A stretch of 64,000 bases of DNA, from contig NC_087078.1 of NCBI RefSeq assembly GCF_026151205.1, forward strand, positions 9,564,675-9,628,674. Direction: 5' to 3'. The translations under genes were made by a program, and so were the position numbers. This DNA comes from Bolinopsis microptera (taxonomy: Eukaryota > Ctenophora > Tentaculata > Lobata > Bolinopsidae). Shown one piece after another: positions 302 through 44,213 of the stretch; position 1 is the first letter of the stretch, and each line of letters begins with the position of its first letter. The notes under the pieces are model-generated. The model was not told where the DNA came from. It ran no database searches and saw only the letters and a list, made by a program, of their open reading frames with translations.

Positions 302-3300
302 GTGCCGAGAACGTGTTAACAAATACATAGAGTGCACTGATCCGGAAGAGCGGCTGGATATAGACGCAGATGTCAGGAAGATTCACTTTTGTTATCAGTA
401 CTTCAAACATCTGCTGAAGCAGGCTGCAAACTCGCGACCTGCTTCTAATCGCACTGTTACTTCGGCAACTTCGCAAATACTACCCGAACAGGTTTGAAAC
501 GAAATCACCATTTAATTAGATGTCAGCTGGGGTTTGTTTATATTTTCTGGTTCACGCGTTAAGACGTCATTTCAGCAGCAGTTTTCATCAGTCAGCAATT
601 CGATTGACTCCCTCAATTTACTACTGTTTTACTTAATCGTAACACATTTCTTTGATTGGGGCGACATCTGTCCGACAGCGACATCTGTCCGACTCAGAAA
701 ATAGGTTATTCGGACAATAGTTTATATCAGATCCTACCGTATGATTTTCTTGAAACTTTCCATAAAGTATGGTGGTTATTATAGGACGGATAATCTGTGT
801 AAGTTTGAGCGAGTTTCTATGTGCCAAATTTGAGATATCACCGTAAACACAAAAATATATCTCCAATTCGGTGGTTTGCAGTGGTTCCAAGGCATATATC
901 TGGAGATCCAACGATACGATTTTCTTGAAAATTTCTAGATAGTAAGATAGCTTCAACAGTGAACTGAACCACGTGACTTAAATAAATAAATGTAATCTCC
1001 AGATGTCGCTGTCGGACAGATGTCGTGTTACCGAAAGTCAACAGTGAGCTGCTTTAAATAAAGAAATGTGCATCACTAAATTAAAATGTCACTATTTTTA
1101 AAATAATTTAGTGTGCGAGCAAAATACTAACCTAAAAAGGCGAAATAAGTTTCACGTTAACATTATATCATCTAGTGTTCCGTCCCTCGCATGTTTATAA
1201 ATCCTCACCACTGCACTTGTCAGGTGGACAAAGAACTGAACAAGCTAAAAGAGCTCCTCGCTCAGAGGGACACAGAGATAAATATCCTGGTTAACCTGTT
1301 GAAGAAAGAAAAAGCTAAGATAAAAGGAGGAGGAGGAGGCGGAGGTGTTGAGAAGCCTATCTCTCCTCCGCCGGTAAAACCTCATCATCAGACACAGAGG
1401 AATGTTAAAACACTGTCAAAAGTTAGTTCAAACTTAAAATTATGGTTGTTTCTTACAATCTGGTATTTGATAAACAGTATTCACTAATTAGAACATATTG
1501 TAACGGTTGTAAATTAATATTTCAAATGGTCTAGCTTTTTGCTTGTTTAAGGGACGCCAGGAAGCGTTTGACATATTCAGAAGGGACTACAAGAACAACT
1601 CAGCTATCGAGCAGAACAAGTCCGAGCTAAAGACTAAGATGAAGGAAGCAAAACAAATCGGCGGGCTTGTTAACAAATCCCGGGAAAAAATCAGTGAGTA
1701 TTTTGACGTAAGAGTGGGCTGGACGTTGTTCTTTAAAAAACTGTTTGATGTAGATTGTAGACCACATCATGTGGTATATGTTCGTGCTACTGCAGTAACT
1801 ACATGTATTGCCATGGTGATGTTTTAATAACTATACCTCCTCCAGACTCGTTAAAGAGTTCGATAGAACAGCGCCGTATTGCCATGGCAGTACAGGGATT
1901 GGTACACTCTGATGTTGCTGAATTCGATCCCAAAGAAGAGGAATTGAAGAAACTGATAGAGTCTGAGAAAGAGAGGTTGGTGAAGATAAAGCATATACCG
2001 TATTTTTAAATGTTTAGAAATAAAATTATATATACATACAATTGTATATCTATATATTTTAGTTTTCTTCATGTCACATAAGCAAATTTAACATTGGTGA
2101 GCATCTGCTAGGTTAACTTAGGTAAATTGCGGTATCGAAATCTCAAAAGAGCAGTTGATTTCTCTTAAATTTTGTGATAAAACACCAATCAATATTAAAG
2201 AAACTTCTCGCCCTCACAGCTACAAACAAAGGTTTGCCCGACTGAGAGAACTAAAGACAGGTATCGAGCACCTGCAGCATCTACTAGAGCAGCAGCGTGT
2301 CCGCTTACAGCGCGACTTTGAGCTGTGGTACGTGGAACAAGCAGCAGGCACTCAGCAGGGTAGAACTGCTTGGAAAACTCCGTCTCCTAAACATCTGGCT
2401 TCTCTTACTGGTATGTGACTGGTATGTGTCTGGTATGTGTCTGGTATGTGTCTGGTATGTGACTGGTATGTGTCTGGTATGTGTCTGATATGTGTCTGGT
2501 ATGTGGGAAAACTGTGTTAATCTTGTAAATCGTAGACGAACTTTAAGACATCGTTGAGCTAATGTTGACTAAATTTGCTTTTTCAGATGAAGTAAGATCA
2601 TCGGGAAACCCAACCCCTAACACTGACCTCCCGTCTCCGCCAATGTCAAAAGAGAGCAGTTATCTTAGTAATCACAACTCAGTTCTAAGCAACAACAGCA
2701 ACACTAAAAATCCTGTACCTAGCATTAGAAGTAATGATCAGAAATGTGAGTTTAACTTCAATTTCAAATACACATTACACATGTGTCTCAATTACACAGT
2801 GTATCAATTACATGTACTTTACATATGTGACTTGTATTCAAAACAGAGGTCGAAATTAGTCAAAAATCTTTCTCAAATGCCAATCATTGAAATAAGCAAT
2901 GAAATCACCGACTCCAGCAATATCAATGAAACAAATCTCAAAGATCATCTCATGGAAATTTTGTCTCCTTACTCAACTGTAATTCCTCAAAATCACCAGA
3001 GCCTCCATATTCACTGCCACCGCTCACTTGATATTCAACCAAACACCCCACACTCCACAGTATATTCAATTTCAAGAAAGGCGCTCCTATGCTGTCAACT
3101 GTGTGTGCACTTATTTCCTTCGCTGCTCCGAAGAGCGAAATAGCTTCACCGAAGATATGCGTCAGCGTAATTCAAATGCACGAAACTTAAACAATTTTAC
3201 TATCAATTTGGTGAGAACCTCGCGAATTAGTCATAATTAAGATTTAAGAATAACCCTGGCCTTGACTTCAAGCAAAGATGATTGTTTTCATTAATCTCTG

Positions 3301-3664
3301 TACAATTATGACGGTCCATGATAATGGATCTATAATTTAATTTTAATCCTGTGTAAATCCTGTGTAATCCTGTGTACACATGTGTCTCAAATACACATGT
3401 GTCTCAAATACACTTATGATAAATACCTCCATTTTACTAGTCTATATTTCTAATCTAAAAACTCGATTCTCCTTTTTAAAGATTTTAAATTTCATTGGAT
3501 CCCAACCAAAACATAAGTACAACAAAAGGTATATATTTTCAGCGTGGTCAGTATCTCAATCGACCGTTAAAAACGGAGCCTTGACGGGGGATGCCGGAGT
3601 AGATAACGATATAATGTCTTTTATGCGAGCCAGAGAGGCTATCCTTAGACGGAGCCAGAAATAA
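302..3664 (+). CDS. KIF6: Kinesin family member 6 (KIF6), C-terminal exons
   Basis: KIF6 is a kinesin-9 family microtubule motor linked to cilia and flagella; the N-terminal motor lies upstream of the window. Deduced exons: 302-491, 1224-1421 (an earlier in-phase donor gives 1373), 1552-1693, 1846-1975, 2220-2410, 2587-2745, 3543-3664. All junction phases agree (0,0,1,2,1,1). The recognition comes from family segments I know from KIF6: QRDTEINILVNLLKKEK in exon 2, QEAFDIFRRDY in exon 3, ELKTGIEHLQHLLEQQ in exon 5 and the tail DNDIMSFMRAREAIL in the last exon. The tail is charged and heptad-rich, as expected of the coiled-coil stalk. Exon 2 has a Gly run encoded by a GGA/GGC repeat. Exon 5 ends at a tandem array of donor sites. 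The frame stays open at 2746-3143 but is best read as intron, because exons 6 and 7 join directly in phase. Stop TAA is at 3662. Confidence 0.87.
654..1026. mobile_element. MITE-like element with TIRs carrying CGACATCTGTCCGACAG
   Basis: A 373-bp segment in the first KIF6 intron of the window. The left end carries two direct copies of CGACATCTGTCCGA about 17 bp apart. The right end (about 1000-1026) carries the inverted counterpart TCGGACAGATGTCG. No coding capacity is visible; the short antisense open frames are fortuitous. Related ends recur at 26090-26205 and, more diverged, at 38176-38255, so this is a dispersed non-autonomous DNA element family. The superfamily was not determined. Confidence 0.6.
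2410..2505 (+). repeat. 11-bp tandem array of splice donors in a KIF6 intron
   Basis: About nine copies of an 11-bp unit, GGTATGTGTCT with variants such as ...GACT. The first copy overlaps the functional 5' splice site of KIF6 exon 5 (exon ends at 2410, G|GTATGTG). Every full copy but one (a GATATG variant) repeats a G|GTATGT donor-like site. Reading on from the exon meets a TGA within the first unit, so use of downstream donors would not be productive. Confidence 0.9.
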
Positions 3665-3676
3665 CCCTTCCTTGTT

Positions 3677-3757
3677 ATACACATTCTACACATTCTACAC
3701 ATTCTACACATTCTACACATTCTACACATTCTACACATTCTACACAATCTACACAGA
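3677..3757. repeat. 9-bp tandem repeat in the KIF6 3' UTR
   Basis: About nine copies of ACACATTCT begin roughly 13 bp after the KIF6 stop codon, presumably within the 3' UTR. The nearest AATAAA on this strand is at 3931-3936. The antisense open frame made of Met-Cys-Arg repeats is a by-product of the 9-bp period. Confidence 0.85.
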
Positions 3758-3930
3758 ATGTGTGTTTGCTTTTACATTGACTGTGTAATGAGGTTTATAT
3801 TTGTACTTTTTAGGCACAAAAATAAGCATAAGCACTCTGCAGATGTTACACAAGAAGAACGTTTTTGATTGATAGATTTAATTGGACTCTCTGTAAATTA
3901 TGAAATATTCAACTATTTTTAGATAAGGTT

Positions 3931-3936
3931 AATAAA
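3931..3936 (+). promoter_or_regulatory. Candidate polyadenylation signal of KIF6
   Basis: First AATAAA on the + strand after the KIF6 stop, about 270 bp downstream. A plausible 3' end, but based on position and motif only. Confidence 0.4.
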
Positions 3937-3996
3937 TGGAGTGGGTAACATGAGCTGGTTATTCTTGTTTTTGTAAAATTTGTCAGTGACAATAAC

Positions 3997-4425
3997 AAGG
4001 TTCGACCGGGATCCCGGCTTAATCCCGGTCCCGGTCAAAAATCGGCCGGGACCGGGAATCCCGGTCCCGGCTAAAATGCCGAATTTTGACAGGTTTTTTT
4101 TGCTAATCTTGTTGAATTATCAAAAAAAGTTTGCACAAATGAACGATTTTTTCAGAGCTATTAACAATAATCTCAGAATGTGTGTAACTGTCTGTGCGCG
4201 TGTAATTTCCGAGCGACTTAATCAAGAATACTTTTGCATTTCCACTGCGATAGTGAAGTCCCGGCCGTAGGCACGGGTTACACTATAGTATAGTACAACT
4301 ACATTATAGGATTAAAGAATATTGAAAGTAAAATTGTTGTTATCTACGATCCTGGTCGTATTTCCGGCACTTTTTCCAGTCCCGGTCACGGGCCCGGCCA
4401 AAAAAGCGTTCCCGGTCGATCCTTG
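3997..4425. mobile_element. hAT-like MITE with CAAGG(A/T)TCGACCGGGA ends
   Basis: The left end reads CAAGGTTCGACCGGGA. The right end is its inverted counterpart, reading CAAGGATCGACCGGGA on the other strand. Subterminal regions are rich in CCCGG runs, while the centre is AT-rich with no transposase. The flanks contain TGACAATA on the left and TGACAAAA on the right, which could be a decayed 8-bp target duplication as expected for hAT elements. Element class is inferred from end structure only. Confidence 0.55.
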
Positions 4426-5139
4426 GACTGACAAAATAACATGTCAAGGGATGGTAAAATGTCGAATCGTTTTCAACCGATTAATAAATCCTATTCAGGT
4501 TTGATTTTAACTGTGACTATTTTTTCTAGTGAATATTAAGAACCGTCTTTAGTCTACCCCTATTAATATTTTTATATTCATGAGTATACTAACTACTAGT
4601 ACTGGAAAAACGAGAGTAGAGTGGATTTTACGTAGAACTTGATTTTGAAAGAAGATACAAAATGAGTGCAACGACTTTATTTGAACACTTTTTTAATGCT
4701 CTTTTTCCGTGTTTAACCTGAGCTTGAGTTATATAACTTATACTTAATTAACTCTGAGAACTACAATGCCTGAGGTTGAGAACTCCAGACGCCCCCCCCC
4801 CCCCCCCGCTCCAGAAGGGTGCAAGCAATAAACTGAATTAATTGGAGCTTTGTTTCACGGTGGAAAGCGTAGTATCCTGATGTTTATGATTTTATGATGA
4901 TGATGATGAAAATCTAAAGATATGGCTACAATGAGCATTTTAATAACAATATTAATTCAATCCTATAATGTGTCATGAAATAATATTAAAACCGTTGTAT
5001 GTATCTACTTAACAAACTTCTTATCGGTCATGTAATCCAGAAAATGTGTTGCTGTTAATAGATAAGCAGCGTTATCACTCAGAAATCAACCCAGTTATAA
5101 TAACAAATTTGAACAAGGGGGGACCAACATTTTAATTGT
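4426..5139. other. Intergenic, with a poly-C tract
   Basis: Between the MITE and the convergent gene at 5140. It holds a 16-base poly-C run (4792-4807) and a short ATG microsatellite near 4895. No coding exon was recognised. Its right part would be the 3' UTR of the minus-strand gene. Confidence 0.5.
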
Positions 5140-8100
5140 CTATCCATCATAATCTGATGAGTCAGTTGTGACTGGTGACACGTATCCTAGTGGTGGTCGT
5201 CGATTACACGCTATATGATGCGGTAAAAGTGGTCTGGGTTTCTTTTCCTTTTTCTTAGTTACTCCTGCACTGCTACTTTTGATTGCTGAACTTGTCGAGA
5301 CAGTGTCCTTATCTTCTACTGATTTTGCTTGACTGCAAACTGCACCTTTCCTGATAAAATGATGTTCGTTTGGCGTTTCTCGAGCTTTCTCTCTCAATTC
5401 TGCTACCAGTTTTCGATGTTCTGTTATGATTTTATATAAGCTTATTAAGAGAACCAGTGTGACATTCGTATAACTTATAACATTGCAATTTGCATTTGTC
5501 GAGTTATTCAGATACTGTACTCGTGTATAAACCATAAACTGATATAATGATAGTTCTATCACCAATTACAGTGAATAATAAATTAAGTTTATGTACATTT
5601 TTTGGTTGATCATATTTTTTTCAAATTTTACTGAATGTGCTGCGTTTTACTTACAAATGAAATGAAATACAGTATTTTATCCCGCTTTTATTAACAATAC
5701 AAATAAAATTAAAGATTGTCAAAGCGGCTGTAAATATAGCCAGGCTAACGTGGACCGTGGCAAGTAAAGTGACAAGTAAAATGCCACCTACTGTTCCAAA
5801 TATACTGTTAACAGTATTTGGAACAGTGGGTGGCATTTTTGCCCTCTCGCGACTTTACCACAATATAACTTCACAGTGCACAATCAATCGACCAGATATA
5901 TTCATACTCGATCTATCCTCAATTCTATCGATTTCCATTCCGATAGTGCAAAATTCATGTAGATTTCAAACTCAGGAAATTAATTAAAATTCCCCAACCC
6001 GAAAAAATACCTCATAAACTTAACGGGTGATAAGTTCGGCTGCTTAAAATTTGCTTAAAATCTCACCGATTATCCGTGTCCTGGCCATACAGCGATGTGA
6101 AAAGTTTGAAGAAAGTGGGACTTTTGAGTCTCGAGATATGCGCCTTTGTGACCACCAAAATTGCCCCTTTGGATAGGGTTTTCGGGTTTCAAGGGATATC
6201 TCGAGTTCGGCTGCTTAAAATTGGCCCAAATTTCACCGATTATCCGTCTCCTGGCCATACAACTGCGTGAAAAGATTGAAGAAAGTGTGATCTTTAAGTC
6301 TCGAGATATAGGCCTGCGATACTGGCCTGGGGGCATCTCCGTGTGGCAGGTTACATTAATCGCTTAGAGAGTTGAAACAGTGCAATTTAATAGATTATCG
6401 CTTATAAATCTATAAATATACTTTCCAGCTTCCTGCGTCATAAACAATACCATTTCCTTACCGAACGTTAAAGTTAATAAATAATATATCAATAATAATA
6501 TTAACTTTTCTTATACCCTGCTATAGAGCAGTATTGTGTCCAACTACAACTACAAGTACAACTACAACTATATAGTAATTATCATGATAGTTGTAGTAGT
6601 TGGACGAATTACCGCTCTCTTCCAACAACTATCATAAAGTAAAATCGGCGTTAAACAACATATCGTCGACGAACGATTCAGCAGAACGAGCTATCGCCCT
6701 GATGACCAATTATAATACAAGGATCACTAGAACTGAATCGTCTTTAAAAAACTTGTTCAAGTGGTTGAGGACCATAGGTATAAATTTTCTTTCACCTCTA
6801 AGAAAGGTTTAAGGAACTTCCATTGAAATTACAGTATTCAGTTCAATTTTGAATAATATACATAGTTTGACTGTCTTGTGCAGATTGTTTTAAAATTTCC
6901 TCTTTGTTATTCTCATTTATTTTGATATTTCCCATCAAACAGCTGTAATGCTGTGAGTGTATATCAATTGTCTCAAAATCACTAATGTAACTACTTGGGA
7001 GCAATAATAAGTGTTTATACCCCATTAATATGCACTTGCTACCCCAGTCACACGAGTCCCCATGAGCAATGGTTGAGACCGCGCCTCAAAATGGAGGCAC
7101 GGAGACATGTTGATCACTTGATGCCAAGATCGAAGAGATATGAGACCTTGACTAAAGATAACCATTATATCACATTTATATTACACTCCATTGCTTTCAG
7201 TTTCAGGGCTCTATCTACAGAGTACAGGGCTTTATCAGATTGGGGTCTCCCGCCCCCCCCTCCCGTCCTCCCGCTAAATCTACTAATCTATATTGCGACA
7301 TGATTATTTGTCGAGATATCTATGTTAAGTATTTGGTTGAATTATATGATGTGTAATCGAATTCGCGCACCGTGGACGCGTTCAGATAAAAATGGTTTTG
7401 AGATCTGATTGAGCTTTTCTGAGCGTTTTATTTGCAGTGATAGTTATAGGAGCTTAATGACATTGCACATAACCTTTCAGTTTCAGTGATATTATACATC
7501 TAAAGCGAAATCTAAGTAAAAACTATAATACTATAATAAATTACCTGCACCAAATGCCATAATTTCTGTCATGTGAATACACGCTTCCTTTTTGTAGCCC
7601 CCTTGGTCATGTCTCACCGTCAGCTTCACTTCATTTCCACACTTCAGATGACAAGGAATTCTATACGTTTGGCCCTTTATAGTCAAAACAAAACTGATTT
7701 TGAGAACTCCGCAGAGATTCTCAATTCCTGTATCGGCGTTGACTACAAATACTTTCGTATCCTGCATACGAGTAGCGCCCCTGTCGAGATGGGATTGGAT
7801 GATCACCACTTCAAAGAAGCAGAAGACTTCATCAAACTTCATTTTGAACCACAAGTCAGTGTTGAATACATACTGAGTGTGTGACAATGTTTCCAGATCA
7901 CCGTCAGTAGCATATTCCGCCTTATATGCCTTACCTTCCCAAGTCAGAGTGCTGCTTTGGGAAACTGATGCGGGTTCAACTTTTTCTGAAAATACTTCAA
8001 TTATTAATACGAATTATTTAAGAGCTGCGGAACTTAATTTCAGATTGAAGCTCTGCAATATAGTATCATTGCCACCACTTAAAACGTTTTATGTTTACGT

Positions 8101-9440: not shown

Positions 9441-9450
9441 AAGATAAAAT

Positions 9451-9957: not shown

Positions 9958-10002
9958 CCCGGGCCAAAATCGGAAAAAAAAAAAATTTTAATATACATAC
10001 TT

Positions 10003-13488: not shown

Positions 13489-19791
<6,303 letters not shown>

Positions 19792-22312: not shown

Positions 22313-25300
22313 TCATGTACTGGCCAGAGAGTCAACAAATTTTTTGCGGTTGTTAAAACACGTAGTGGCAAACCTAGCAACGACTCTCGTGAGGTGGACT
22401 TGACTTTCGTTCGTGATAAGTTCAATGATTTCACTGTTGTTGCTGATGAATTTGAGGACGTTTGCTCCAGGGATGACAGCGTGAACAGAATAAGATGTCG
22501 CAGACGGTTTGATTGGATTTGATATGAGTGACTGGATCTTGTCTAGGACTTTTCGCCTCGATGCAGCGTTAAGATCACAATGGTTAAGGAAGTGATCTTC
22601 ATTCTCAATAATACCAGAACCTAAGACTATATTGCACCAGGAGCATATTCGCTCGTCACGAGGAGTTTGATTATATCGGCCAAGTTCAATTTCGAGTCGA
22701 TGTGCACTGATCCGCAGTCTTGTGATATTAGCACGGTCTGCATATTTAATGACACTATCTAGGTAATACTCTTTGTTAAATTTGGATTTTAGGTCACGAT
22801 AGAATTCTAATTTCCGAGAAGTGTTGATACAGGACCCCCAATATTCTCTAAAGTTACATTTCAAGGTTTTAGTAATGACGTGTGGTGTGAATATTTTACT
22901 CCCGATGGGTTGTGTTGATTGAGGAGGAATTCGTTTCTTGAAACCGTTGTGAATAAGAAAGTCCTCTTTTGGTGGTTTTGCGATACTCGGGTTTTTTTCG
23001 AAAAGTAACTTGGAGTGATTGTTTTTGAGTGTGCGGTAGGCTGTGACATGATCGGTAGAGAAACATGGGTCTAGCGCGAGGACAGGCTCCAAACCCCTGT
23101 ACCAGTCCAATTTCATGTTCATCTGTTCTTTGAAAGCTAAGGAGACAAGGGAGTTATCTTTGAGATTTTTCAAACGTTGGCTATATTTGAGAGTGAGGTT
23201 AATACATTCATAGATTAATGGGTAGCGGCCTGACTCACCCCAGACGCCTGCGTTGCTGGCTTTACGATTTACCCCCAGTGACCATTTAAGAAAGTGAAGG
23301 TGAACTTTTTCGCTGTTCAGAAGGCTAACTTTCTTGAGGATACTAGTTTGAAATTTTGTTTTTGTGTCGGCATCCATATTGAGATCGACTTGTTTTGTTA
23401 TGTGTTTTATGATAGCCATGTTAGGTGTGTAAATAGGCGCTCCGTAAAGAACGATAGGTTTAATAAGACCATCAAAGAGTGTTGTTAGAGAGCGGAATGA
23501 TAATTTGGATTTGTTTACTGAGCTTTTCATGGCATAAAGTGCACGCATGGCTTTCTTTTTGAGCTCAGTTCGGGCATTTGTGAATGTGCCGGATTTGTGT
23601 ATTTCCATTCCTAGATAGCAGTATGACTCGACTTCTTCTAACAAGTGATCACCAATTTTGAGGGGAACCGGCTGATAAGTATCAAAACGGGCATTAAATT
23701 TCATGAGTTTAGTTTTATCTGCATTAATTTCGACGCCCCATTCCAAGCAGAAATTGTTCAAAGCATCGAGTTGCTTTTGGAGGGTTTTGGGGTCCAGTGC
23801 CAAGAGTATCAGATCATCTGCCCATAGTAAGTGACTGATAAGTTGGTTCATTAGTTTCGGACAGTTATCATATTCTAGTCGAGGGGAAAGATCTCTGATG
23901 TATATCTTAAATAGATCAGGGGAAAGTGGATGACCCTGTTCAGTTCCTTTATTGATATCAAATTTTTCGCTGACAAATCCAGATAGTTTTATCTGGCCAG
24001 TGGAATTTTTATACATATGTTAAAGAACATTAAATGTTTTGCCAGTGATACCTAGTTTAGCTAATTTTAAGAAAAGAGCTTCACGGCAAACAGAGTCGAA
24101 GGCCTTCCGGAAGTCCACAAAAACAGCATAGACGGGAACCTTGAGCTTTTTGTATTTAGACGTAATTGTGTTGAGTGTGAGTATGTGGTCATATGTTTGA
24201 GCTCCTTTAGCGAAGCCAAGTTGATTTATGGGGTCCGGGTTGTATTCATTTTTGAACTTGATTATCCTGTTTAACATGATGGTCGAAAATAATTTTCCGA
24301 TTGTACTACTCACAGCAACTGCTCTGTAATTGTCTGGATTATCTTTGTCGCCTTTTTTGTGTAGGGGTGTAATAATGCTGTTGTTCCATGGGTAAGTTCC
24401 AGTGTCCAAACAGCGGTTAAAGACTTTGCAAAGGAGTTGTGTGTTTGTTGTGGACAAGGTCTTCAGTATTTCATTACATATCATATCCTCCGAGGAACTT
24501 TTGCCGTTTTTGAGTGAAGAGATCGCAGTAGATATTTCGTCCACAGAGATCTGGCCATTGAGTATTGATTGTGCAGGGGATGGTTGGAAATTATTGTTAA
24601 TAGCCTCTGCATTTTGAAGCATTTTTTCCTTATTCTCTACAGTTATGGTGCTATGTGCATTGGCATAAAGTTTACCAAAGAATTTTTGAAAGTTGTCCAT
24701 GTCATGGCAATCAAATTTGTCAACTCTTCCTTTAAATTTTTTCAGTTTTTTGAATTGTTTCCAGTTTAGAATTTTACCAGATTCAATATCTGTATTCAGT
24801 TTGTCAAGATATTTGTTTTTTGTACGGTCAATTAAACTTTTGTACGTATTTTTTACCTGGTAAAAATTTTTTCGAAGATAATCGCTATTGGGGAAATCAG
24901 AAACAATTTGAGCTGCACGAGTACAAGATATTTTAGCTTCTCTGGTGGCTTGTGTGAACCAGGGTTGTTTATTTATTGATCCCTTTTTGGTTATTTTGGG
25001 ATGTTTGGTCTTTTGGAGACATTTGTCTGCTATTTTGTTCAAGTGTACTGTGATATCTTCGTTTAATTTGTATGTACCTATGAGATCTTCGGGATAATCT
25101 GTTTCTAAGAGGCTTTTGGAACATTCTTCCACAAGTGGGTCCATCATTGTATCCCGTAAGCTTGAAAGGCTATCAGGAGTTATTTTGTAACGAAGTGGGG
25201 CTCGAGCGTAAGTTTCATGGAGTGCCTTTGTGTTTACAAGAGTGTTGGAAGGAGAGAAGTTGAGTGCCAGGAGTAGTGGTTTATGATCAGAAAAGCAAGT

Positions 25301-25975
25301 GAACGGCTGGATTGTCATATGACTTAGATACTTACTGCAGTTTGGGGATATAATAAAGTAGTCAACAACGCTGGCACCGCTGGTCTGAATACAAGTGAAG
25401 TCACCATATGAGTCTCCTAAAGTTCTCCCATTGAGAATATGGAGTTCATTATTGACAAGCATTTCTAGAAAGGGTCTTTTGTAATTGTTCGACTTTTTGT
25501 CCTTTGAGTTCCTGGTTGGAAGTTCTTGTGGAGTGTAGTCTTCTGGCAGGGGAATGAAGCTCTCGTAGCCACATTTGTCCTCTTTGATAAAGTCGATGTC
25601 ATGGCCGATACGCGAGTTGAAGTCACCACAAGTAATGACATCACCTTTACTTAAAAGAACATTGAGAAATTGGTCCAGTTCACGGATGGTGTCAAAGCCC
25701 GAAATATTTGAGTTTTTAGAGGAAGTGTTAGCTGGCTTAATGTATGAGTTAACAATGAATATATCATTATCTACGCCAAAGTAATTTTTGTCAAGTTTAC
25801 AGGCAACAACATCTTCAATTGTGGATTTTTCAAGTTTAACGCCTTTGGATATTTCGTTTTGGACCATTATGCATACGCCACCATGTTTTTTTTTGATCTC
25901 CATACTGGCACTGCTGTCCTATATGTACTCAATACTCATGTCCTGTGATGTGATCGACAGTGTGTTAGGGTACGG
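22313..25975 (-). mobile_element. APE-type LINE retrotransposon (endonuclease + reverse transcriptase), one in-frame stop
   Basis: An open frame runs from 25903 to 22313, broken only by TAA at 24022-24020. The same frame resumes at once, giving about 1,196 codons in total. The first part has the end of an AP-like endonuclease (GDFNSR near residue 95, SDHKPL near residue 205). Reverse transcriptase blocks follow: HKKGDKDNPDNYRAVAVSS, NQLGFAKGAQTYDH and FVDFRKAFDSV. After the stop come GTEQGHPLSPDLF, the catalytic block LLWADDLILLA (WADD in place of the usual F/YADD) and KTKLMKF. A zinc-knuckle-like segment (CSWC ... HFLNHC) lies near the C terminus. The endonuclease N terminus is missing or degraded upstream of 25903, where reading back meets TAGs near 25922 and 25973. 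A 5'-truncated, recently inserted copy is likely. The clade was not determined. Confidence 0.88.
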
Positions 25976-27113: not shown

Positions 27114-30100
27114 CTAAAACTCTCGAACCGGACGAGGTTTGCTCTGAACGATGTCCCAGAGTTTGATGCAAGGAAAACACAGCGTGTTTATAAAGAATCT
27201 CTTTATTTCTCTGTCCATGAGCCCGAAGACGAGAGGGTTAACAGCGCTGTTTAAGAAAACCATCCAATGCATCAACCAGGACACTTTCAGAGGGACTTTC
27301 ACGTTCTCAGGGTTATGCTGGGAGGGTATAATGGTGTTAGATTTCACGTTCTCAGGGTTGTGCTGGGAGGGTATAATGGTGTTAGATTTCACGTTGTCAG
27401 GGTTGTGCTGGGAGGGTATAATGGTGTTAGATTTCACGTTGTCAGGGTTGTGCTGGGAGGGTATAATGGTGTTAGTTCACGTTGTCAGGGTTGTGCTGGG
27501 AGGGTATAATGGTGTTAGTTCACGTTCTCAGGGTTGTGCTGGGAGGGTATAATGGTGTTAGATTTGTTTTATTTTGTTACAATGTTGGATATGTAATACG
27601 TATAAAAAGTTGATGATGTTAAGATGATAATAACAATAAGTAATATTAAAACTGTTAAATAACAAGTTCACCCAATAGATGAGGGAAGTAATAAAAGTAG
27701 GTCCGGTGCAAACAAAGAAAACTCCTACGATGGCCAGGGTCCGCAGGGCGGGTCTCAGTGTCACGGACATGACACTCCGCTTCTTTCTTGTGGCGAGACG
27801 ACCTGAGCTTCTTCTACGGTACATCTTCGACATACTTGACATTCTGCATAGCCTGCGGTTAAGCTACTTGTTATTTATAGAATAAGATTATTAAAATAAT
27901 TATTAGTTTTAATTAATATTATTAATTAAAATAACTAATTTAACCATCTGCTTAATTAATATTATTAATTAAAATAACTAATTTAACCATCTGCTTAATT
28001 TAAAATTTTCGCTGATGAGCTCTATTTCTATAGAACTTTACCAGGTAGTTCAATAAAGTGAGACAAGACGCAGTTGTGGAATGTGGTCCTTACCCGTCTA
28101 GCCGGATTTATTTGTGATTTATGGTGCTCACTCTAATTAATTTAGTCGTTTTACTTAATTTCCTAAAACTACCATTCTCGTCTTACTTCAATTTTCAGTT
28201 TATTACCACTATTCTCGTTAAACTTATTAAATAAATTCACTAAATACTTTATAACCTAATCAAAATTGTGGCCCGACTTTATAACTACTGCCACCCACCT
28301 GGGATCGTTTCTGCAGGAGTCGTCTGGGACGATCTTGTCAGGTAGGGTGGTAGCCACACTGCTGTTAACTACCTGCACCTTCACAGCTGTCTGCTCCTCT
28401 ATCTCTATTGCTGTGCTCCGAGGGCCGGAGGAGCTGTCCCCTGCCTTTTCTTTCCGTCCGTTGTGCGTCATCCTGGGGGCTTGTGTGTGCAAACTTGTGG
28501 TTTAGAATCAGATAGCAAAGAATGATGTATAGTGAGATTTTCTATGTGAAAACATTGGACAACACCTTCGGATGATGTGGTATACAGAACCAGACTTGCT
28601 AGGTTACTAAATTGCTAAGTTACTAACTTAGTTACTAGCTTAGTTACTAGCTTAGTTACTAGCTTAGTTACCTGTGTCGGGAGATGAGGGAAGGCATGAC
28701 AACGTAAAGGATTAGGGAGTAGCACGCGAACACGATGGTTATTGGGATGAGCAGTGCCATCAGCATTACTAACAGGAAGTATGACCTGGAGGACCTGAGC
28801 AGTTTTTATATGTTAGATACAAGTTGGAGGCTGAGGATATCACTTCTTAATTGTAAAAAATTTGTGTACTCGATAAATTTGATTTTTAGCGACTTATTCC
28901 CAGCCACGTGTATTTTCTCTTGATCTCATATAATTTAATTAACGTACAAATCCCATATATTTTCTTGCCAAAAATCTGGGGGGAAATAACTAACTTGTTC
29001 TCAAGTCCGAGTCCGCAGTTGTAAGAGTGTTCGCTGTACTCGTAGTTACTATGGTAACTAGTAGTGTTACCATGGTAGCATGTATGTAATTGTGATATGT
29101 TACTATGGTTACATTGACAATCTGACTAACTTGTTCTCAAGTCCAAGTCCGCAGTTGTAAGAGTGTTCGCTGTACTCGTAGTTACCGTAGTTGAAGAAAG
29201 GTAGGATGGAAACAACCACTGCAATTAACCACACTAACACTATCCACTGAGGGAACATGGTTAGATGGGATGATTTTTATTAGAAATTAAAAATTAAAAT
29301 ATATATCATGGGTTTGCACGTGTGTTCATTCTTTAGTTTGTTATATCTTTCTTTTATTCGACGGATTATTGGCGATAAAGGAACAAACTTCGATTCTTCG
29401 TATAAAAGAAAACTTCTTTTGCTAAATTGCCTTTATATTTTTGACTAATTTATTTAATATTATTTTAATACCGTACCTGTTTGACTACAGTTCCTGTGAT
29501 ACAGCTTCTATGCCAGAGGGGTTTAGAGACCGCTAGACACCTATCTACCGAGCTAGCAGCCAACGTTAGCGTTCCTAAAGGATTTACTGTAATTTTATAA
29601 ATAAATTTACTGCCAAATGTCTAATGACACTGACAATTTATATACGGTAAATTAAATCGGGGTTTTACTGCACCAAGAAATATCAAATAAAATTTACAAA
29701 TTATAATCTTATGAAAAATGAGCTTATACCAACAATTAGGCTAGGTTACCGATAAGCAGAAGAAACTGAAAGAGTGGTAAAGTATCAATAAGTTTGTAAA
29801 CCTGTGATAATGAGAAGATTATCAGTAGCAGCTATAAGATTACACATTGTGTGACCGAACATCCACTGATCAAATATTGCAGTCGTTATTGTAGCTGGAC
29901 CTGGTAGAAAACAGTATAATTAGTCTAATTAGTCTAATTAGTCAGAATGGAAAAGGTCAGTAGATTGGAGTAAGAGAGGATTTACAAATTGAGGCAATTT
30001 ATTAAAATTTAAAGTGTATAATACTTAATAGGAGTGCAGTAATAATAAATAGTAAAATTATTAGAATGACATTCAATGTATTGATGATTCCCATCTGACA

Positions 30101-38140: not shown

Positions 38141-38175
38141 TATAAAAGTTTAGATAGGGTAACAATAAACACGAC

Positions 38176-38255
38176 TTTTGTCCGACAACGACTTTTGTCC
38201 GAACCCTCTAATTTCGGATTCAGACAAGAGTCACTGTCGGACAAAATTCGCCCAA
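38176..38255. mobile_element. Diverged relic of the GTCCGACAG MITE family
   Basis: CGACTTTTGTCCGACAACG, then GACTTTTGTCCGA, and an inverted CACTGTCGGACAAAATTCG about 40 bp on repeat the two-end arrangement seen at 654-1026 and 26090-26205, with substitutions. Confidence 0.45.
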
Positions 38256-38574
38256 TCCTAGATACCTCAATCTTATAACATCTCTCTCCTTCGTTAGGAG
38301 TAAGGGCATGTTCATCCGTTTATGATACATCGCCTATACTACACGTGGGTGAACAAATCCGTGCATCAGCTTGAGCTGGAGACTTCACAGGTCACTTCCG
38401 GGTGCAGGGAGAGCAACAAGTAATCAAATTTGAGCCGAGCAACGCTCAATAAAATTACCTAGCAACCAGTACCATGGTCTAAGGTAAAATGACCATGGAT
38501 AGAGCCGAGTACTTTAGTACGTGCTGAAACTTGCACATGCACTAAGAGAGTAATAAGAGAGTAATAAGAGAGTA

Positions 38575-38685
38575 ATGGAGTGGGAGGAACGTATCCTGGC
38601 AGCGCACAACCCTGAGACCTGCAGACCACGCGCGCAATGGTCAGGCTTCTTGGATACCATGCTGGACTCTGCTGGGATCATGTAG
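38575..38685 (+). CDS. Possible terminal exon, unidentified gene
   Basis: A GC-rich 36-codon stretch reads EERILAAHNPETCRPRAQ, then WSGFLDTMLDSAGIM and TAG. Composition and codon choice look coding compared with the AT-rich surroundings. Three copies of an AGAGAGTAATA-like 11-bp word precede it directly, so the true 5' border is uncertain; the frame opens only 21 bases upstream of the ATG. I do not recognise the family. It could be a last exon or a pseudogene fragment. Confidence 0.3.
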   Translation: MEWEERILAAHNPETCRPRAQWSGFLDTMLDSAGIM

Positions 38686-39159
38686 CGATATCAGCTGCAA
38701 TTATGTGATTGGGAAAACAAAATCAGATTTCAGTGATGTTGTACAAAAATGCATGCACACTGCACAGCGTATAACTGTATTACAAAACAATGAATAAAGG
38801 GTGTTGAGCAATCTGTGGTCAAAAGTGACAAATTTTATTGTTTTTTTTGGGTTGTCTGCAAATAAAAAAGTATAAACTTTCTTTGCGAATATATTAATAC
38901 TATTTTGTGTTACTGTTTATCCTTTAATCGGGAACTGAAAGTAGTATCCGGTATCGTTTACCACTGATATCTCGTCAAGTCACACAATTTAATGTTGCCT
39001 CCGTTTTTTTCTGAAACAGCGGCATATAACTAAATGGTTCAGCGGCCTTGTGCGGGTCACATACCTAATTGATTCCAGGTAGTATTCACACAGCAAACAC
39101 AATACATACCTATTTGATATCGTATCAGGTTTCGTGATCTAGTTTCTGGCCGTATCCTA

Positions 39160-39843
39160 CTATAAATATCTGGATAGATACTGTATTGGGGAGATGTCCC
39201 CTTGTGACAGTGATTCTAGGTTTTGATTAGTCAATACTGGTTGCTTATCGCTCAATGCTGGTAGCTGATCGCTCAGTGCTGGTAGCTTATCGCTCAATGC
39301 TGGTAGCTGATCGCTCAGTGCTGGCTGCTTATTGCTCAATACTGGTAGCTGATCGCTCAATACTGGTAGTTGATCGCTCAATGCTGGTAGCTGATCGCTC
39401 AGTGCTGGCTGCTTATTGCTCAATACTGGTAGCTGATCGCTCAATGCTGGTAGCTGATCGCTCAGTGCTGGCTGCTTATTGGTCAATGCTGGTAGCTGAT
39501 CGCTCAATACTGGCTGCTTATCGCTCAGTGCTGGTAGCTTATCGCTCAATGCTGGTAGCTGATCGCTCAGTGCTGGCTGCTTATTGCTCAATACTGGTAG
39601 CTGATCGCTCAATACTGGTAGCTGATCGCTCAATGCTGGTAGCTGATCGCTCAGTGCTGGCTGCTTATTGCTCAATACTGGTAGCTGATCGCTCAGTGCT
39701 GGCTGCTTATTGCTCAATACTGGTAGCTGATCGCTCAGTGCTGGCTGCTTATTGCTCAATACTGGTAGCTGATCGCTCAGTGCTGGCTGCTTATCGCTCA
39801 ATACTGGTAGCTGATCGGTCGATGCTGGAAGCTGATCGGTCAT
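39160..39843 (-). CDS. Repetitive ORF encoding a 7-residue repeat (21-bp minisatellite)
   Basis: An ATG-initiated 227-residue frame begins MTDQLPAS and consists of about 27 heptapeptides of the type (D/N)(Q/K)(L/Q)PALS. It ends with a unique tail (NLESLSQGDISPIQYLSRYL). The 21-bp DNA array spans about 39231-39845. Because the period is a multiple of three, the opposite strand is also open for 196 codons. No frame-breaking indel occurs in roughly 29 units, which is compatible with selection but also with recent amplification. No promoter, splice context or known family supports expression. It would be an intrinsically disordered protein if made. Confidence 0.3.
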   Translation of the reverse strand: MTDQLPASTDQLPVLSDKQPALSDQLPVLSNKQPALSDQLPVLSNKQPALSDQLPVLSNKQPALSDQLPALSDQLPVLSDQLPVLSNKQPALSDQLPALSDKLPALSDKQPVLSDQLPALTNKQPALSDQLPALSDQLPVLSNKQPALSDQLPALSDQLPVLSDQLPVLSNKQPALSDQLPALSDKLPALSDQLPALSDKQPVLTNQNLESLSQGDISPIQYLSRYL

Positions 39844-40073
39844 AATGGCAGAAACGTGTCAGAAGAGATATGGTTCCAGTATCCAGATCTATAGGTCCTC
39901 ATTGCAGAGATATTGCGTACCAGGATCTTGTACTTGATACTACATATACTACAATACTTGTATACCCTGTTTGGAATCACGCGTCTCATCTTCATGACGA
40001 GATTAGGTTTTTTATAACTGATGCTGGCTCTAATGCTCTAATAGACCATGGTAAGAAATCGTGTTCTTTCTAA

Positions 40074-41221
40074 AAGTAAAAGAAACTTTTCGTATCACTT
40101 ATATGTTTTAAATAATCCCGCTCCACATGTCCTTAGCTCATACGTTTTGTTTGACCGAGAACCGCGGTTACCGGTTAGTTAAAGGTGATATAAGGAAGTA
40201 AGGATATATACTATATAGTCCATATTGTTAAGATCATGTAACGTAAACTAACAGCTACATTTCCTAAGCTTCCCGGTCATCTCACGTTTCATGACATCTT
40301 ATATTGAGGATTTAAACATCCCCGAGTTTTAACATCCGATTCTAATTTAATGCCACTGTACTCCTTAGAACGGAATCACCCTCAATACATCGGTTTCTAA
40401 TTGGTGCTATGCTGCAGTCTTGCTGCTTTAAAATTGGTGTGGCTTTCAGTGACTTGATACCGAATAATGTGTGCAGTAATCTTGTCGATATTATACTCTT
40501 GCCGATGTTGGTCTTCTATCTACTATAAGTCAACTTTTAAAATAATCATCATCACACTTACTGCTATTAATAGTTCATTAAATTATCTGACATTAATTGA
40601 CATTCTAGTCGCCACATTTGCTATAGTTATAGTATAATTTGTAGTGCTTTATGCATAATAAATCTTGAGCGCAGAGCCCGATCGGTTTTATTTTGCATTT
40701 ATTTTTGTTCATCTACAAACTCCTTGCCGGAACTTAAGTAAGACAGGATTTAAAGAAATCGTATCAACATTATTAATTTCTATAACTCCTAAAATTTCTC
40801 TGTCGAAAAACTGCTTTCATCTTTTCATATGATCACTGACCGCCGCTTCTATCACCAAACTTGTTGACAGATTTGATTTGCACAAATTACAGCTGAAATC
40901 TCCAAATCATACAATTTCTCAATGTTAAAATCAACGTATCACTATCATAAGCATAAGGTGTTCATAAAATATAACATTTACAATAAGTGACATAACTGAA
41001 TCAATATCATGTAACAGTATATCCACGAAAACTGAATCCAGGACGAGGAAATTATTAAGATGTTTTAAAGGCTGTTTACCCAGGACCTGGATTGCGGAAA
41101 GGGTTTATCTCTTGGCACTGGCGCCTCTTTTGTTAATTTGTCCCTTAAATTATACAATATACTTTTAATATGTTTTTTGAGATCCTAGTTTTAATAGTCT
41201 GTAATACCCTTCTTATCTCTG
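40074..41221. other. Intergenic, nothing recognised
   Basis: AT-rich DNA without exon, array or element that I can support. Confidence 0.4.
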
Positions 41222-41443
41222 ACCTGGTTGCTAGGTAACTGGTTGCTAGGTAACTGGTTGCTAGGTAACTGGTTGCTAGGTAACTGGTTGCTAGGTAACT
41301 GGTTGCTAGGTAACTGATTGCTAGGTAACTGGTTGCTAGGTAACTGGATGCTAGGTAACTGGTTGCTAGGTAACTGGTTGCTAGGTAACTGGTTGCTAGG
41401 TAACTGGTTGCTAGGTAACTGGTTGCTAGGTAACTGGCTGCCA
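41222..41443. repeat. 15-bp tandem repeat GGTTGCTAGGTAACT, ~15 copies
   Basis: A homogeneous array; each unit contains CTAG|GTAACT, a good 5' splice-site consensus on the + strand. No exon ending at its left border was recognised (the sequence before it is CTCTGACCT). The antisense ATSYL-repeat frame is a by-product of the 15-bp period. Confidence 0.92.
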
Positions 41444-42746
41444 TCCTAGTTTTTATATGAGCTTATCTTGTTACCCGAGCTTTGTTTCGAGAGCACCTCA
41501 GACTATATTGATAATTAATTGAGAGTCAACGTCAGATAAGGGCATCGGTCAGACTTGTGTAAAATATAAATCAAAATTATATTCTTGCGTTTTATTTAAT
41601 ATATTTTGTACGATCAGCTAGTTTGAATTGCACCAAAAATAACCGATTCTATTACTTTGTGTTTTTTGTATAGTTCTCTAGACACTAATTATATCATAGC
41701 CAGCTAGTTCAGGCCCTCTAAATACTACTAGTTCAGTTCCTGGGTTCCCCAAACCGTTTAAGTATCAGGGTGAGCATTTTACAGTAGGTGTTAACTGTGA
41801 AAACGTTACTGGTAATGGTTGTTGTCATGGTAATGGTTGTTGGTTGCTATGGTGGTTACAACTTTACAAGGTGCCAGGTTCTCACTAGGACCTTATTATA
41901 ATTAGTTGTATCACAGCTCTGAGCAGTGAGCAGTGAGCAGTGAGCACTCTCTTTCATCTTCTCTAAGTATCAGGACCCTGTGTAATCGGAAGGTAAATGT
42001 GAGGAGTTCCACTATATTAATATAGCTAGAACGCAAACTCACTATTTTGAAGGATTTATAATGTTGAAAACTTGAAAGGTTGTTTTGTAACTTGAGTCTT
42101 GAACGCAAACTCACTATTTTGAAGGATTTTTAATGTTGAAAGGTTGTTTTGTAACTTGCTGGTATTGGTTGTTGTCATGGTAATGGTTGCTGGTATTTCT
42201 GCGGGTTCAGTGTGGAATCTTTTCGGATTTTGTGGTTCTATGTTTCAGTCTCCTGATCATGATATCACTTTCTAATTGTAGAGAGATAGGATTTTCTTAA
42301 AAAACTTAAAATAGCTTTGTCTAATAGAATAGGGCAAGGGTTGATTAGTTTATCATAACCAACAATCGAGTTTATTTTCGTTTTCTTTTTAAAACGGGGC
42401 ATAAAACTTTAATTGAACTCTGTCTAAAAAAGTAAAGGGCACGAGTTAACAAGTTCAGCGGGATAACAATGGGGGTTGTTTTTGTCTGTAATATGATTAC
42501 CTTTGTTGAAGCTGTCTGTTTGGCTACTTTGTTGGGTTATACTTTAGTAAATACCGTGTAAATAATAATATCATACTCATTTTGTAACGATCTTTATAAT
42601 TTCTAATCTCTAATTTTCTAATTCCTAATTTCTAATTTTATTTCTACTCATTCTGATATATATATTTGTCTTTGGATATAGTTTCATTCATTTCGTACGT
42701 CTGTTCAATCGATTGTCTCCGCTGAGCTGTGTTTAAAATTGTAAAA
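41444..42746. other. Upstream flank of the 42.7-kb gene with local duplications
   Basis: Contains GGTAATGGTTG repeats (about 41810-41850), four GAGCAGT units (41921-41945), and a ~70-bp duplication beginning AACGCAAACTCACTATTTTG at 42031 and 42103. TATATATAT at 42656-42664 lies about 85 bp before the ATG at 42747 and could serve as a TATA element. Confidence 0.5.
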
Positions 42747-44213
42747 ATGAGATCTCCCATCATTATAGGTCGTAACACTAACAAGGCTAAAACCCAACCA
42801 CCTAAACCATCAATCGTATCACGACTAAAGTAAGTAATAGTTAAATAGTTAATTAAAGTAAGTAATAGTTAAATAGTTAATTAAAGTAAGTTAGTTAAAT
42901 AGTTATAAGTTAAATAAAGTAAGTAATAGTTAAATAGTTAATTAAAGTAAGTAATAGTTAAATAGTTAATTATAGTAAGTAAGGAAGTAAGTAAGATTAA
43001 AGTAAGTAATACAGATAATCAGTACAGCATTAAAGTATATACCTAACTGGTTGGAAATTAAAATCAACGTCATAATCTAAACCAGGGGGTCCTTTCCGAA
43101 ATGAAACTTAAGTTCTTACTTAGTTTAAGTAATCGCCAAGTAAAATCATGTTTGTCCTTACCGAAACACTACTTAAGTAAAGTGCAGCGTTTCCGAAACT
43201 TTTACTTAAAGTGTTTACGAAACGCGTCAAAGTTACAAATTTACACGTGCAAGTAACAAATGCGCGCCTAAAATGCGCGCAAAAACTCTGATGACGTAAT
43301 TCGTCATGCAATTGCTTGTTGGTGCGATCACGTGCTTGTTGGTGTGCCATGGATTTTGTTATCATGAATATAACCATTCATGTTGAGTTGAATTTGATAT
43401 CGCAATTTGAATTTGATAATCAATAAATGTTAATTTTATGAGTTCTAATATTCACTATTGAAATTCGAATCTGCACTGTGATTAAATCTGAATCTCCCTA
43501 ATTTGTTTCCTCGTAGTGTTACCATGAGTGTGGCCGGCAAACAAAGAGCACGCTCGTTTACTTCTGAAGAGAAGACTTTACTGTTGCAACTTGCTAATGC
43601 TGAGAAAGCTTATTTGAAAGGTCGCTTCGGGCCAACTATAACAAAGAAAGGGAAACAAGGAAAATGGAAAATACAATGAAATTTGGGATATTAAGTAAAA
43701 ACTTACAATTCTAAGGTTGGTCTGAACCAAACTTAAAAAAATTAGCAAAAAATGAAAAATTGGAAGCAACTTAAGTAAAAAATAGCTCTTAAGTTGAAAC
43801 TAAGCAAAAATCGAAGTAAAAACTTAATTCAAAAATTTTGCTTGAAAATTTGCTAACTTTGTTACTTAAGTTGGTTTTCGGAACGGATTTTAGCAAAAAA
43901 GGGAAAACTAAGCAATATTTACTACTAAGTTTCATTTCGGAAAGGACCCCCTGGTCTTTAGCTGAGCATTAGAATGATTCATCCTGCATATTACCAAGTT
44001 GCCAATAATTATGATGCATAATTTAATTATTCGCGGTAAATTATTCTTCATTATTCATCCTTTCAGATTCTTCAAATTTGTCGTGTCTTTTTAAACTCTG
44101 TTTCTCTCTGCAGACCAAGATTAGAATTTAAAGGACTTGACGGAACTACACTCAACATGCTCCGAACTGCAGCCCTTAATGCTAACAACAACGCTTCCTC
44201 CAGTGACGATGAC
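42747..44213 (+). CDS. First two coding exons of an unidentified gene
   Basis: Exon 1 (42747-42829) starts AAAATGAGA and encodes MRSPIIIGRNTNKAKTQ, then PPKPSIVSRL. It ends at AAA|GTAAGT (phase 2). Exon 2 (44114-44213), after CTCTCTGCAG, encodes RLEFKGLDGTTLNMLRTAAL, then NANNNASSSDDD, and ends at GAC|GTAAGT (phase 0). Both borders match strong consensus sites and the frame is open across the join. The product would begin with a basic, proline-containing segment followed by a Ser/Asp-rich one, suggesting a cytoplasmic or nuclear regulatory protein. I do not recognise the family. Later exons must lie downstream; 54649-54672 is a weak phase-0 candidate. Confidence 0.6.
42828..43005 (+). repeat. 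28-bp tandem array of splice donors after exon 1
   Basis: The unit AAAGTAAGTAATAGTTAAAT plus AGTTAATT starts at the exon-1 donor (AAA|GTAAGT at 42829/42830). It recurs four to five times with indels and degenerates into GTAAGTAAG words. Reading through the donor meets TAA at once. Confidence 0.88.
43083..43956. mobile_element. DNA transposon remnant with ACCAGGGGGTCCTTTCCGAA ends (Harbinger-like)
   Basis: The ends ACCAGGGGGTCCTTTCCGAA and the exact inverse at the right border give terminal inverted repeats of about 30 bp (ATGAAACTTA continues the match less perfectly). The 870-bp interior has a Myb-like gene fragment but no DDE transposase. It sits in intron 1 of the 42.7-kb gene. No clear target duplication was found. 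Confidence 0.75.
43524..43679 (+). CDS. Truncated Myb/SANT-like DNA-binding protein of the transposon
   Basis: A 51-residue frame starting MSVAGKQRARSFTSEEK and containing LLLQLANAEKAYLKGRFGP. The pattern F(T/S)xEEKxxLL...GxFGPxxT is typical of the Myb/SANT-like accessory protein of PIF/Harbinger elements, which helps bring the transposase to the ends. The family length is much greater, so this copy is cut short by a stop after KWKIQ and is probably non-functional. Confidence 0.55.
   Translation: MSVAGKQRARSFTSEEKTLLLQLANAEKAYLKGRFGPTITKKGKQGKWKIQ

What the first reader, a model, noticed from the sequence alone, without database searches (positions are those of the whole stretch)
2401..43005. 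Tandem repeats that begin exactly at functional splice donors, in four unrelated genes
Six exon ends carry a tandem repeat or duplication whose unit contains the donor and starts at the exon/intron border. KIF6 2410: 11-bp unit. Homeobox 17125: 29-bp, ~54 copies. Homeobox 14909: ~76-bp, 5 copies. GPCR 28672: 12-bp. GPCR 29131: 62-bp duplication. Unknown gene 42829: 28-bp. Unit sequences are unrelated; only the anchoring is shared. Chance placement to the base in about 20 introns looks unlikely. Either replication or repair tends to duplicate AG|GT-containing DNA here, or arrays of decoy donors are tolerated or selected. In the cases checked, read-through reaches a stop within one unit.
Basis: partly seen in the sequence, partly recalled or inferred. 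Interest (0 to 1): 0.88.

Follow-up and report, generated by a model that had tools for sequence, protein, structure and literature searches.

The report
Repeat arrays straddling exon-intron borders
In this animal genome, short DNA repeats have often multiplied right across the edge of an exon, leaving introns with up to dozens of identical splice sites of which apparently only the one at the exon can be used; the pattern is real and widespread, but most of it may be what random duplication in short introns would give.

Summary
All six features exist; five sit at donors with good scores and an open frame. "Begins exactly at the donor" is too strong: most units carry from a few to about 55 exonic bases plus the donor. 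A seventh array in the window, not listed, straddles an acceptor (27297-27565).

In an independent sample from the same genome (248 introns, nine protein families), 7 of 49 large arrays cross a donor and 3 an acceptor. Genome-wide, three spaced copies of AGGTAAGT occur 1407 times against 12 for the pattern read backwards; TTTCAGGT 315 against 27. Of 18 such arrays inspected, 10 straddle a coding-exon border (4 donors, 6 acceptors) and 2 more have a unit copy on one.

Chance is less unlikely than claimed. If arrays arose in introns of today's collapsed length, donor crossing is about 2.6-fold in excess (p about 0.01); if in introns of about 200 nt (the array-free median), there is no significant excess. 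Donor specificity is not shown.

Best reading: ordinary tandem duplication and minisatellite growth in compact introns, tolerated because normally only the exon-proximal copy keeps the message intact (read-through meets a stop in 21 of 21 cases). Which copy is used needs RNA-seq.

The parts
2408..2505 (+). 11-bp array (CTGGTATGTGT x 8.9); last exon base 2410 of a KIF6/KIF9-type kinesin gene; unit = 3 exonic + 8 intronic bases
   Evidence: TRF; sequence; KIF9 domain on the upstream exon; 7 of 8 later donors as strong as the first
15566..17132 (-). 29-bp array x 54 over the donor (last exon base 17125) of a homeobox gene; unit = 8 exonic + 21 intronic bases, GT...AG
   Evidence: TRF; sequence; Homeodomain of the gene; 51 of 53 later copies keep GT, 38 of 53 as strong as the first
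14894..14918 (-). exon-end copy (10 exonic + 15 intronic bases, by eye) of the 76-bp unit; possible donor, last exon base 14909 (weak, score 3.6)
   Evidence: sequence
14535..14808 (-). 76-bp array x 3.6 whose units repeat the 14894-14918 segment
   Evidence: TRF; sequence
28614..28671 (-). 12-bp array x 4.8 starting at the donor (last exon base 28672) of a rhodopsin-type GPCR gene; later copies are weaker donors (mean 3.4 against 9.9)
   Evidence: TRF; 7tm_1
29125..29185 (-). first copy of a segment of about 61 bp: exon end (55 bases) plus donor GTTAGT (last exon base 29131), same GPCR gene
28989..29049 (-). second copy of that segment, 136 bp downstream inside the intron
27297..27565 (-).
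   Evidence: TRF
42826..42982 (+). 28-bp array x 5.4 over the donor (last exon base 42829) of a gene without family match; unit has 4 exonic bases
   Evidence: TRF; no Pfam match

Best explanation
These are minisatellites born by ordinary tandem duplication in short, repeat-rich introns. When the duplicated stretch (about 10-140 bp) spans an exon-intron border, every copy carries exon-end (or exon-start) sequence plus a complete splice site. The array then grows by slippage or unequal exchange and lengthens the intron. The message stays unchanged as long as the exon-proximal copy is used: the 5'-most donor or the 3'-most acceptor. Exon definition, which favours sites closest across the exon once introns exceed about 200-250 nt, would give that choice, so growth of the array protects itself. 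Shown: the arrays, their position over exon borders, intact later donors in exon-crossing arrays, stops on read-through, recurrence across the genome. Inferred: the duplication mechanism, use of the exon-proximal copy, near-neutrality.
For: Border-straddling arrays in independent genes: 7 donor and 3 acceptor among 49 arrays of TRF score >=100 in 248 introns. Genome-wide words: 1407 against 12 and 315 against 27 backwards; 10 of 18 inspected arrays straddle a coding-exon border by TRF coordinates, 2 more have a copy on it. Two-copy cases (L086, L037, L080) look like the first step, a tandem duplication of 38-55 bp over the donor. Random placement in introns of at most 203 nt predicts 6.2-6.9 donor crossings against 7-8 seen. 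In exon-crossing sample arrays later copies stay intact donors (L015 7 of 7, L023 24 of 24, L093 11 of 11; L074 51 of 51 keep GT, 49 of 51 as strong). Read-through stop within 55 nt in 21 of 21. Exon-centric rule: PMC9225289, passages.
Against: With today's collapsed intron lengths donor crossings exceed random placement 2.6-fold (p 0.0075-0.012), and with lengths capped at the array-free mean (478 nt) the excess is borderline (7 against 3.84, p 0.08; 8 against 4.34, p 0.06). No RNA evidence on which copy is used. Several affected introns are short (KIF 176 nt, GPCR 199 and 336 nt), where intron definition would favour a downstream donor. In L128 (12-bp unit, in frame, stop only after 22 nt) use of the second copy need not break the frame.
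Confidence: 0.6

Rival explanations
1. Mutational bias: replication, repair or a transcription- or splicing-linked process duplicates donor-containing DNA more often than other intron DNA in this genome.
For: Donor-containing arrays 8 against 2.93 expected (p 0.0051), 10 against 3.31 with a tolerance of +3 nt (p 0.0007); array starts are denser at -30 to +20 of the donor (12 in about 12.2 kb) than further inside introns (0 to 0.43 per kb by bin).
Against: No significant excess if arrays were born in introns of at most 203 nt (p 0.22-0.42). With score >=50 the excess is weak (7 against 4.07, p 0.10). Array ends near acceptors are almost as dense (10 in about 12.5 kb). Crossings of 7 against 3 are a small difference.
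Confidence: 0.17
2. Selection keeps arrays of donors, for example to recruit U1 or to strengthen exon definition in lengthened introns.
For: Later donors in exon-crossing sample arrays stay at full strength.
Against: Intact copies are equally expected from recent, homogenised arrays: the rest of the unit is about as conserved. In the 54-copy homeobox array donor positions are about twice as variable as the rest (0.033 against 0.017). 38 of 49 large arrays in the sample do not start within 5 nt of the donor or upstream of it. Arrays starting at or just after the border have weaker later copies (L076, L095, GPCR 28672).
Confidence: 0.07
3. Ratchet or recursive splicing: AG|GT units act as joint acceptor-donor points, so the array is removed in steps.
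For: Some units read GT...AG with AG|GT joints (homeobox 29-bp unit; L012 unit).
Against: AG|GT follows simply from the CAG|GT donor and CAG|G acceptor consensus of this genome. By eye, no pyrimidine tract in the homeobox unit; the KIF 11-mer holds no AG.
Confidence: 0.05
4. The exon borders are wrong, or the arrays are assembly artefacts, and the association is spurious.
For: No transcript evidence; one called crossing (L073) fell away on inspection of its donor score.
Against: Frame, matrix and profile continuity agree (margin above 1.5 for 147 of 148 and 113 of 113 calls scoring above 6); family matches on spliced or adjacent exons for part of the cases; copies within most arrays differ from each other.
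Confidence: 0.05

Closest known systems
Internal tandem repeats at exon-intron boundaries of human segmental-duplication genes (PMC2812944, passages read)
   Same: Tandem repeats lying on exon-intron borders and carrying exon sequence
   Different: There: variable repeats between recent paralogs, 27 intron modifications, new introns through cryptic sites, transcript support. Here: conserved genes of one animal genome, arrays of up to about 50 copies, exon apparently unchanged
Intron gain by tandem genomic duplication of an AGGT-bearing exon segment (Rogers model; review PMC3443670, passages read; potato case PMC4974935, search listing only)
   Same: Tandem duplication that carries AG|GT, giving repeated splice sites
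   Different: There the duplicated exon piece becomes the whole new intron. Here an existing intron is lengthened at one end and the donor-crossing sample cases keep 95-1794 nt of other sequence before the acceptor
Intronic minisatellites / VNTRs (for example the 38-bp repeats of TERT intron 6, PMC3948165, abstract start in search listing; CeRep25B of C. elegans, PMC4039745, abstract)
   Same: Unit size, copy number, intronic place
   Different: The TERT array lies more than 1 kb from the junctions; these contain the splice site and coding bases
Exon-centric proximity rule for competing splice sites (PMC9225289, passages read)
   Same: Predicts use of the exon-proximal copy among equal donors when introns are long
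   Different: Human alternative sites and minigenes with competing copies, not natural arrays of dozens

Membership tests
Intronic minisatellite | head-to-tail units of about 10-100 bp, several copies, high identity | tested here: met
   TRF; exception: GPCR 29131 (two copies 136 bp apart)
Intronic minisatellite | copy number varies between individuals | not testable with these tools
   one assembly only
Tandem repeats at exon-intron boundaries (human ITR class) | array overlaps an exon-intron border of a real gene | tested here: met
Tandem repeats at exon-intron boundaries (human ITR class) | variable between recent paralogs in segmental duplications, changes transcript | not tested
   no paralog pairs compared; no transcripts
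Intron gain by tandem genomic duplication | intron consists of the duplicated exon segment, bounded by the two AGGT copies | tested here: not met
   95-1794 nt of sequence outside the array remain before the acceptor in the seven donor-crossing sample arrays. Near exceptions: L128 (start +3) leaves 28 nt; the L144/L157 intron is almost all array
Intron gain by tandem genomic duplication | intron absent from relatives | not testable with these tools
   no related animal genome held
Introner elements | related sequence inserted as introns at many loci | tested here: not met
   86 units compared all against all: related pairs only within one array or locus, in two introns of the L076 gene, and in the L021/L022 pair; one more unit at two places on C1
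Recursive splice (ratchet) points | joint 3' and 5' splice site used stepwise | not testable with these tools
   no RNA; AG|GT joints exist in some units

The most novel reading that the evidence does not exclude
This genome makes new tandem arrays preferentially at functional splice donors, through a duplication process tied to transcription or splicing. It thereby holds perhaps thousands of natural introns in which the spliceosome must, and does, pick the exon-proximal one of up to about 50 identical full-strength splice sites.
Probability: 0.18. Interest if true: 0.8.

Novelty: new variant of a known kind. Interest (0 to 1): 0.52.

Why it matters
Arrays of identical donors or acceptors at real exons are natural experiments on how a spliceosome chooses between equal sites, and on exon versus intron definition in an animal with mixed short and long introns. 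They also show how introns can lengthen from the border inwards and how duplicated AG|GT can pile up without evident harm. If the donor excess holds in data with known ancestral intron length, it would point to a mutational process tied to splice sites.

Tried and rejected
L073, first counted as a donor crossing, was removed because its called donor scores 0.6. A depletion of periods divisible by three among exon-crossing donor cases (1 of 16, hand count over) is post hoc and unproven. L141 and L152, first counted by eye as straddling, are by TRF 45 and 30 nt away from the border, with a unit copy on it.

Five further homeobox introns (L158-L162) were only looked at with TRF: one array of score >=100 (L158), not at a border by eye; they are not in the counts. 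When the hit lists were typed into, I left out hits that seemed intronless, duplicate paralog hits, hits on an unplaced contig and isolated weak hits. TIGR00957 gave one pair. Paper searches on ctenophores and tandem repeats in introns and on repeats at exon borders listed no paper that describes this pattern genome-wide in an animal, as far as titles and abstract starts show; the library is only part of the literature.
Full report
Setting. The window is G000:C7:9564675-9628674 of a 264.65-Mb assembly with 232 contigs. The lengths of C1-C13 printed sum to about 258 Mb (about 97.5%). This resembles the ctenophore Bolinopsis microptera (13 chromosome-scale scaffolds holding 97.23% of bases, about 254 Mb by k-mers; PMC10232365, passages). 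The species name is my inference; no tool gave it.

Observation. All six features are in the sequence at the stated places. Splicing the receptor gene at its called sites gives a match to 7tm_1 over profile positions 2-259 of 260, with both listed donors inside the match. The homeodomain and KIF9-domain matches identify the other two genes but do not span their listed donors. The unknown gene's border rests on frame and sites. The second homeobox donor (14909) is weak, and that exon could instead end at a nearby stop. Most of the arrays include a few exonic bases, so "begins at the border" is better put as "contains the border". The 29131 case is two copies of about 61 bp lying 136 bp apart. 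A seventh array, 27297-27565, straddles an acceptor of the same receptor gene.

Independent sample. Because the six were picked by eye, I took introns of conserved genes chosen without regard to repeats. Profile searches of G000 with PF00063, PF00225, PF00209, PF00118, TIGR01652, PF08393, PF12774, TIGR00957 and PF01602 gave neighbouring exon matches: 168 pairs, then 110 new pairs plus 10 of the first set not yet covered. Splice sites were called by frame, profile continuity and a matrix learned from the data. In the first set 157 of 168 pairs lay in fetched regions, 155 were solved and 148 scored above 6, 147 of these with a margin above 1.5. In the second set 120 of 120 were solved and 113 scored above 6, all with that margin. 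This gave 255 distinct introns, median 239 nt, one of them containing N; consensus CAG|GTAAGT and TTTCAG|GT. Seven with a weak donor or acceptor score were dropped, among them L073, which had counted as a crossing. That leaves 248.

Result. In the 248 introns there are 49 arrays of TRF score >=100 (period >=8), in 39 introns. Seven cross the donor by at least 3 exonic bases: L074 33 bp x 52, L023 35 bp x 25, L093 65 bp x 12, L015 53 bp x 8 (also read as 207 bp x 2, the value used in the null), L086 55 bp x 2, L037 53 bp x 2, L080 38 bp x 2. One more starts at the donor (L076), two at +3 (L095, L128) and one at +5 (another L076 intron). Three cross the acceptor: L024, L080, L012. Some of the 49 are not independent: the 10-bp arrays of L021 and L022 share their unit, as do two introns of the L076 gene.

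Null. A duplication unit of p bases placed at random in an intron of length I0 crosses the donor with probability of about p/(I0+p), which is not small in introns of 200 nt. With each array collapsed to one unit, expected donor crossings are 2.55 (seen 7, p 0.0088) and donor-containing arrays 2.93 (seen 8, p 0.0051); acceptor crossings 2.55 (seen 3). At a lower array threshold (score >=50) the donor excess is weak: 7 against 4.07, p 0.10. With all arrays of an intron collapsed: 7 against 2.69 (p 0.012) and 8 against 3.09 (p 0.0075). With lengths capped at the array-free mean (478 nt): 7 against 3.84 (p 0.08) and 8 against 4.34 (p 0.06). Capped at the array-free median (203 nt): 7 against 6.17 (p 0.42) and 8 against 6.90 (p 0.38), with acceptors at 3 rather low (P<= 0.11 and 0.06). 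With a tolerance of +3 nt the donor figures are 10 against 3.49 (p 0.001), 4.84 (p 0.016) and 7.63 (p 0.22). The true null probably lies between. Edge densities within -30 to +20 nt are 12 array starts at donors and 10 array ends at acceptors, so a donor-only effect is not shown.

Genome-wide words. Three copies of AGGTAAGT spaced 14-44 nt: 601 + 806 = 1407 matches, against 12 + 0 for the pattern read backwards. TTTCAGGT likewise: 162 + 153 = 315 against 1 + 26. Matches are not arrays: the 100 listed donor-word matches (C1 and the start of C2) fall into about 7 arrays, the 100 acceptor-word matches (C1-C5) into about 14; how many arrays the controls form is not known. In the window plus the fetched sample AGGTAAGT occurs 14 times against 6 for its mirror and TTTCAGGT 28 against 6, so word abundance explains about 2-fold of a 117-fold excess in matches for the donor word but 5-fold of 12-fold for the acceptor word. 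The mirror says nothing about placement inside introns.

What these arrays are. I fetched 6 of the 7 donor-word and 12 of the 14 acceptor-word arrays with flanks. By TRF coordinates 10 of 18 straddle the border of an open, coding-like exon. Donors, with exonic bases inside the array: L135 (other strand, 29), L137/L155 (40), L138 (33), L151 (8). Acceptors: L143 (26), L144 (23), L146 (33), L147 (13), L149 (28), L150 (other strand, 4). Two more, L141 (donor) and L152 (acceptor), have a unit copy on the border but their TRF array lies 45 and 30 nt away. L148 starts just after a possible donor, by eye. Five (L136, L139, L140, L142, L145) show no coding exon and are unresolved. Exon identity is backed for L138 (Reprolysin, 2e-4), L143 (ubiquitin-conjugating enzyme, 1e-14), L144 (Ephrin_rec_like, 3e-6), L150 (Na_Pi_cotrans, 1e-4, below cut-off), L151 (Sec1, 0.003, below cut-off), L149 (GMP synthase, 0.006; 0.002, below cut-off) and L152 (TIGR01652, 8e-8, below cut-off). 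L135, L146 and L147 had no family match; L137 and L141 were not scanned. These five rest on open frame and sites only.

Inside the arrays. In exon-crossing arrays most or all later copies keep the donor at or near full strength (L015 7 of 7, L023 24 of 24, L093 11 of 11, L074 49 of 51; homeobox 17125 38 of 53; KIF 7 of 8; unknown gene 4 of 5). Donor positions are not more variable than the rest of the unit in L015, L023, L074, KIF and the unknown gene and about equal in L093, but about twice as variable in the homeobox array (0.033 against 0.017). Arrays that start at or just after the border have weaker later copies (two L076 introns, L095, L128, GPCR 28672). Reading through from the exon meets a stop within 55 nt in 21 of 21 donor cases tested; using a later copy would therefore add a stop or, where the stop lies beyond one unit (L015, L138, L151, L095), shift the frame. 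L128, with a 12-bp unit, is an exception.

Mechanism. Two-copy cases show the likely first step: tandem duplication of 38-55 bp over the donor. Growth then lengthens the intron. Human data show that among equal donors the downstream one is favoured under intron definition (short introns) and the upstream one under exon definition, with the change near 200-250 nt (PMC9225289, passages). Growing arrays would thus move the exon into the regime where the decoys are ignored; the short introns here (KIF 176 nt, GPCR 199 and 336 nt) are where the model could fail. This is inference; no RNA was available.

Relation to known work. Human internal tandem repeats at exon-intron borders (PMC2812944, passages) and intron gain by tandem duplication (PMC3443670, passages) are the nearest kinds. 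The Hormiphora genome paper says TRF marks 13% of that ctenophore genome as repeats (PMC8527503, passages); the passages I saw do not mention splice borders. The searches made listed no description of border-straddling arrays as a genome-wide class, in a library that holds only part of the literature and of which I saw mostly titles and abstract starts.

Verdict. The lasting interest is the set of natural splice-site arrays, which makes site choice directly testable.

Noticed in passing
window 43081-43955 (+): Element with 30-nt perfect terminal inverted repeats inside the unknown gene's intron, carrying a short frame that matches Myb_DNA-bind_5: a likely DNA transposon (type not established).
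   Followed up: partly
window 22313-25918 (-): Non-LTR-type retrotransposon (type inferred): two long adjoining open frames (632 and 568 aa), each with about half of RVT_1.
   Followed up: partly
window 39160-39858: 42-bp array of about 14 copies (also read as 63 bp) that is open on both strands for more than 200 codons; could be coding repeats or simply a stop-free unit whose period is a multiple of three.
   Followed up: no
G000:C1:36576-37703 and C1:761375-762150: The same 32-bp donor-bearing unit occurs at two places on C1, perhaps a segmental duplication.
   Followed up: no
L144 and L157 (G000:C2:616000-618700): An intron that is almost entirely a 50-bp array of about 40 copies running into its acceptor, before an exon with an Ephrin_rec_like match.
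   Followed up: partly
L137, L153, L155 (G000:C1:4181450-4183600): 44-bp array in which the donor varies between GTAAGT, GTTAGT and GTGAGT from copy to copy.
   Followed up: no
L076 (G000:C12:14833327-14836780): Two introns of one kinesin gene carry arrays of the same 21-bp unit, so a unit can apparently spread between neighbouring introns.
   Followed up: no
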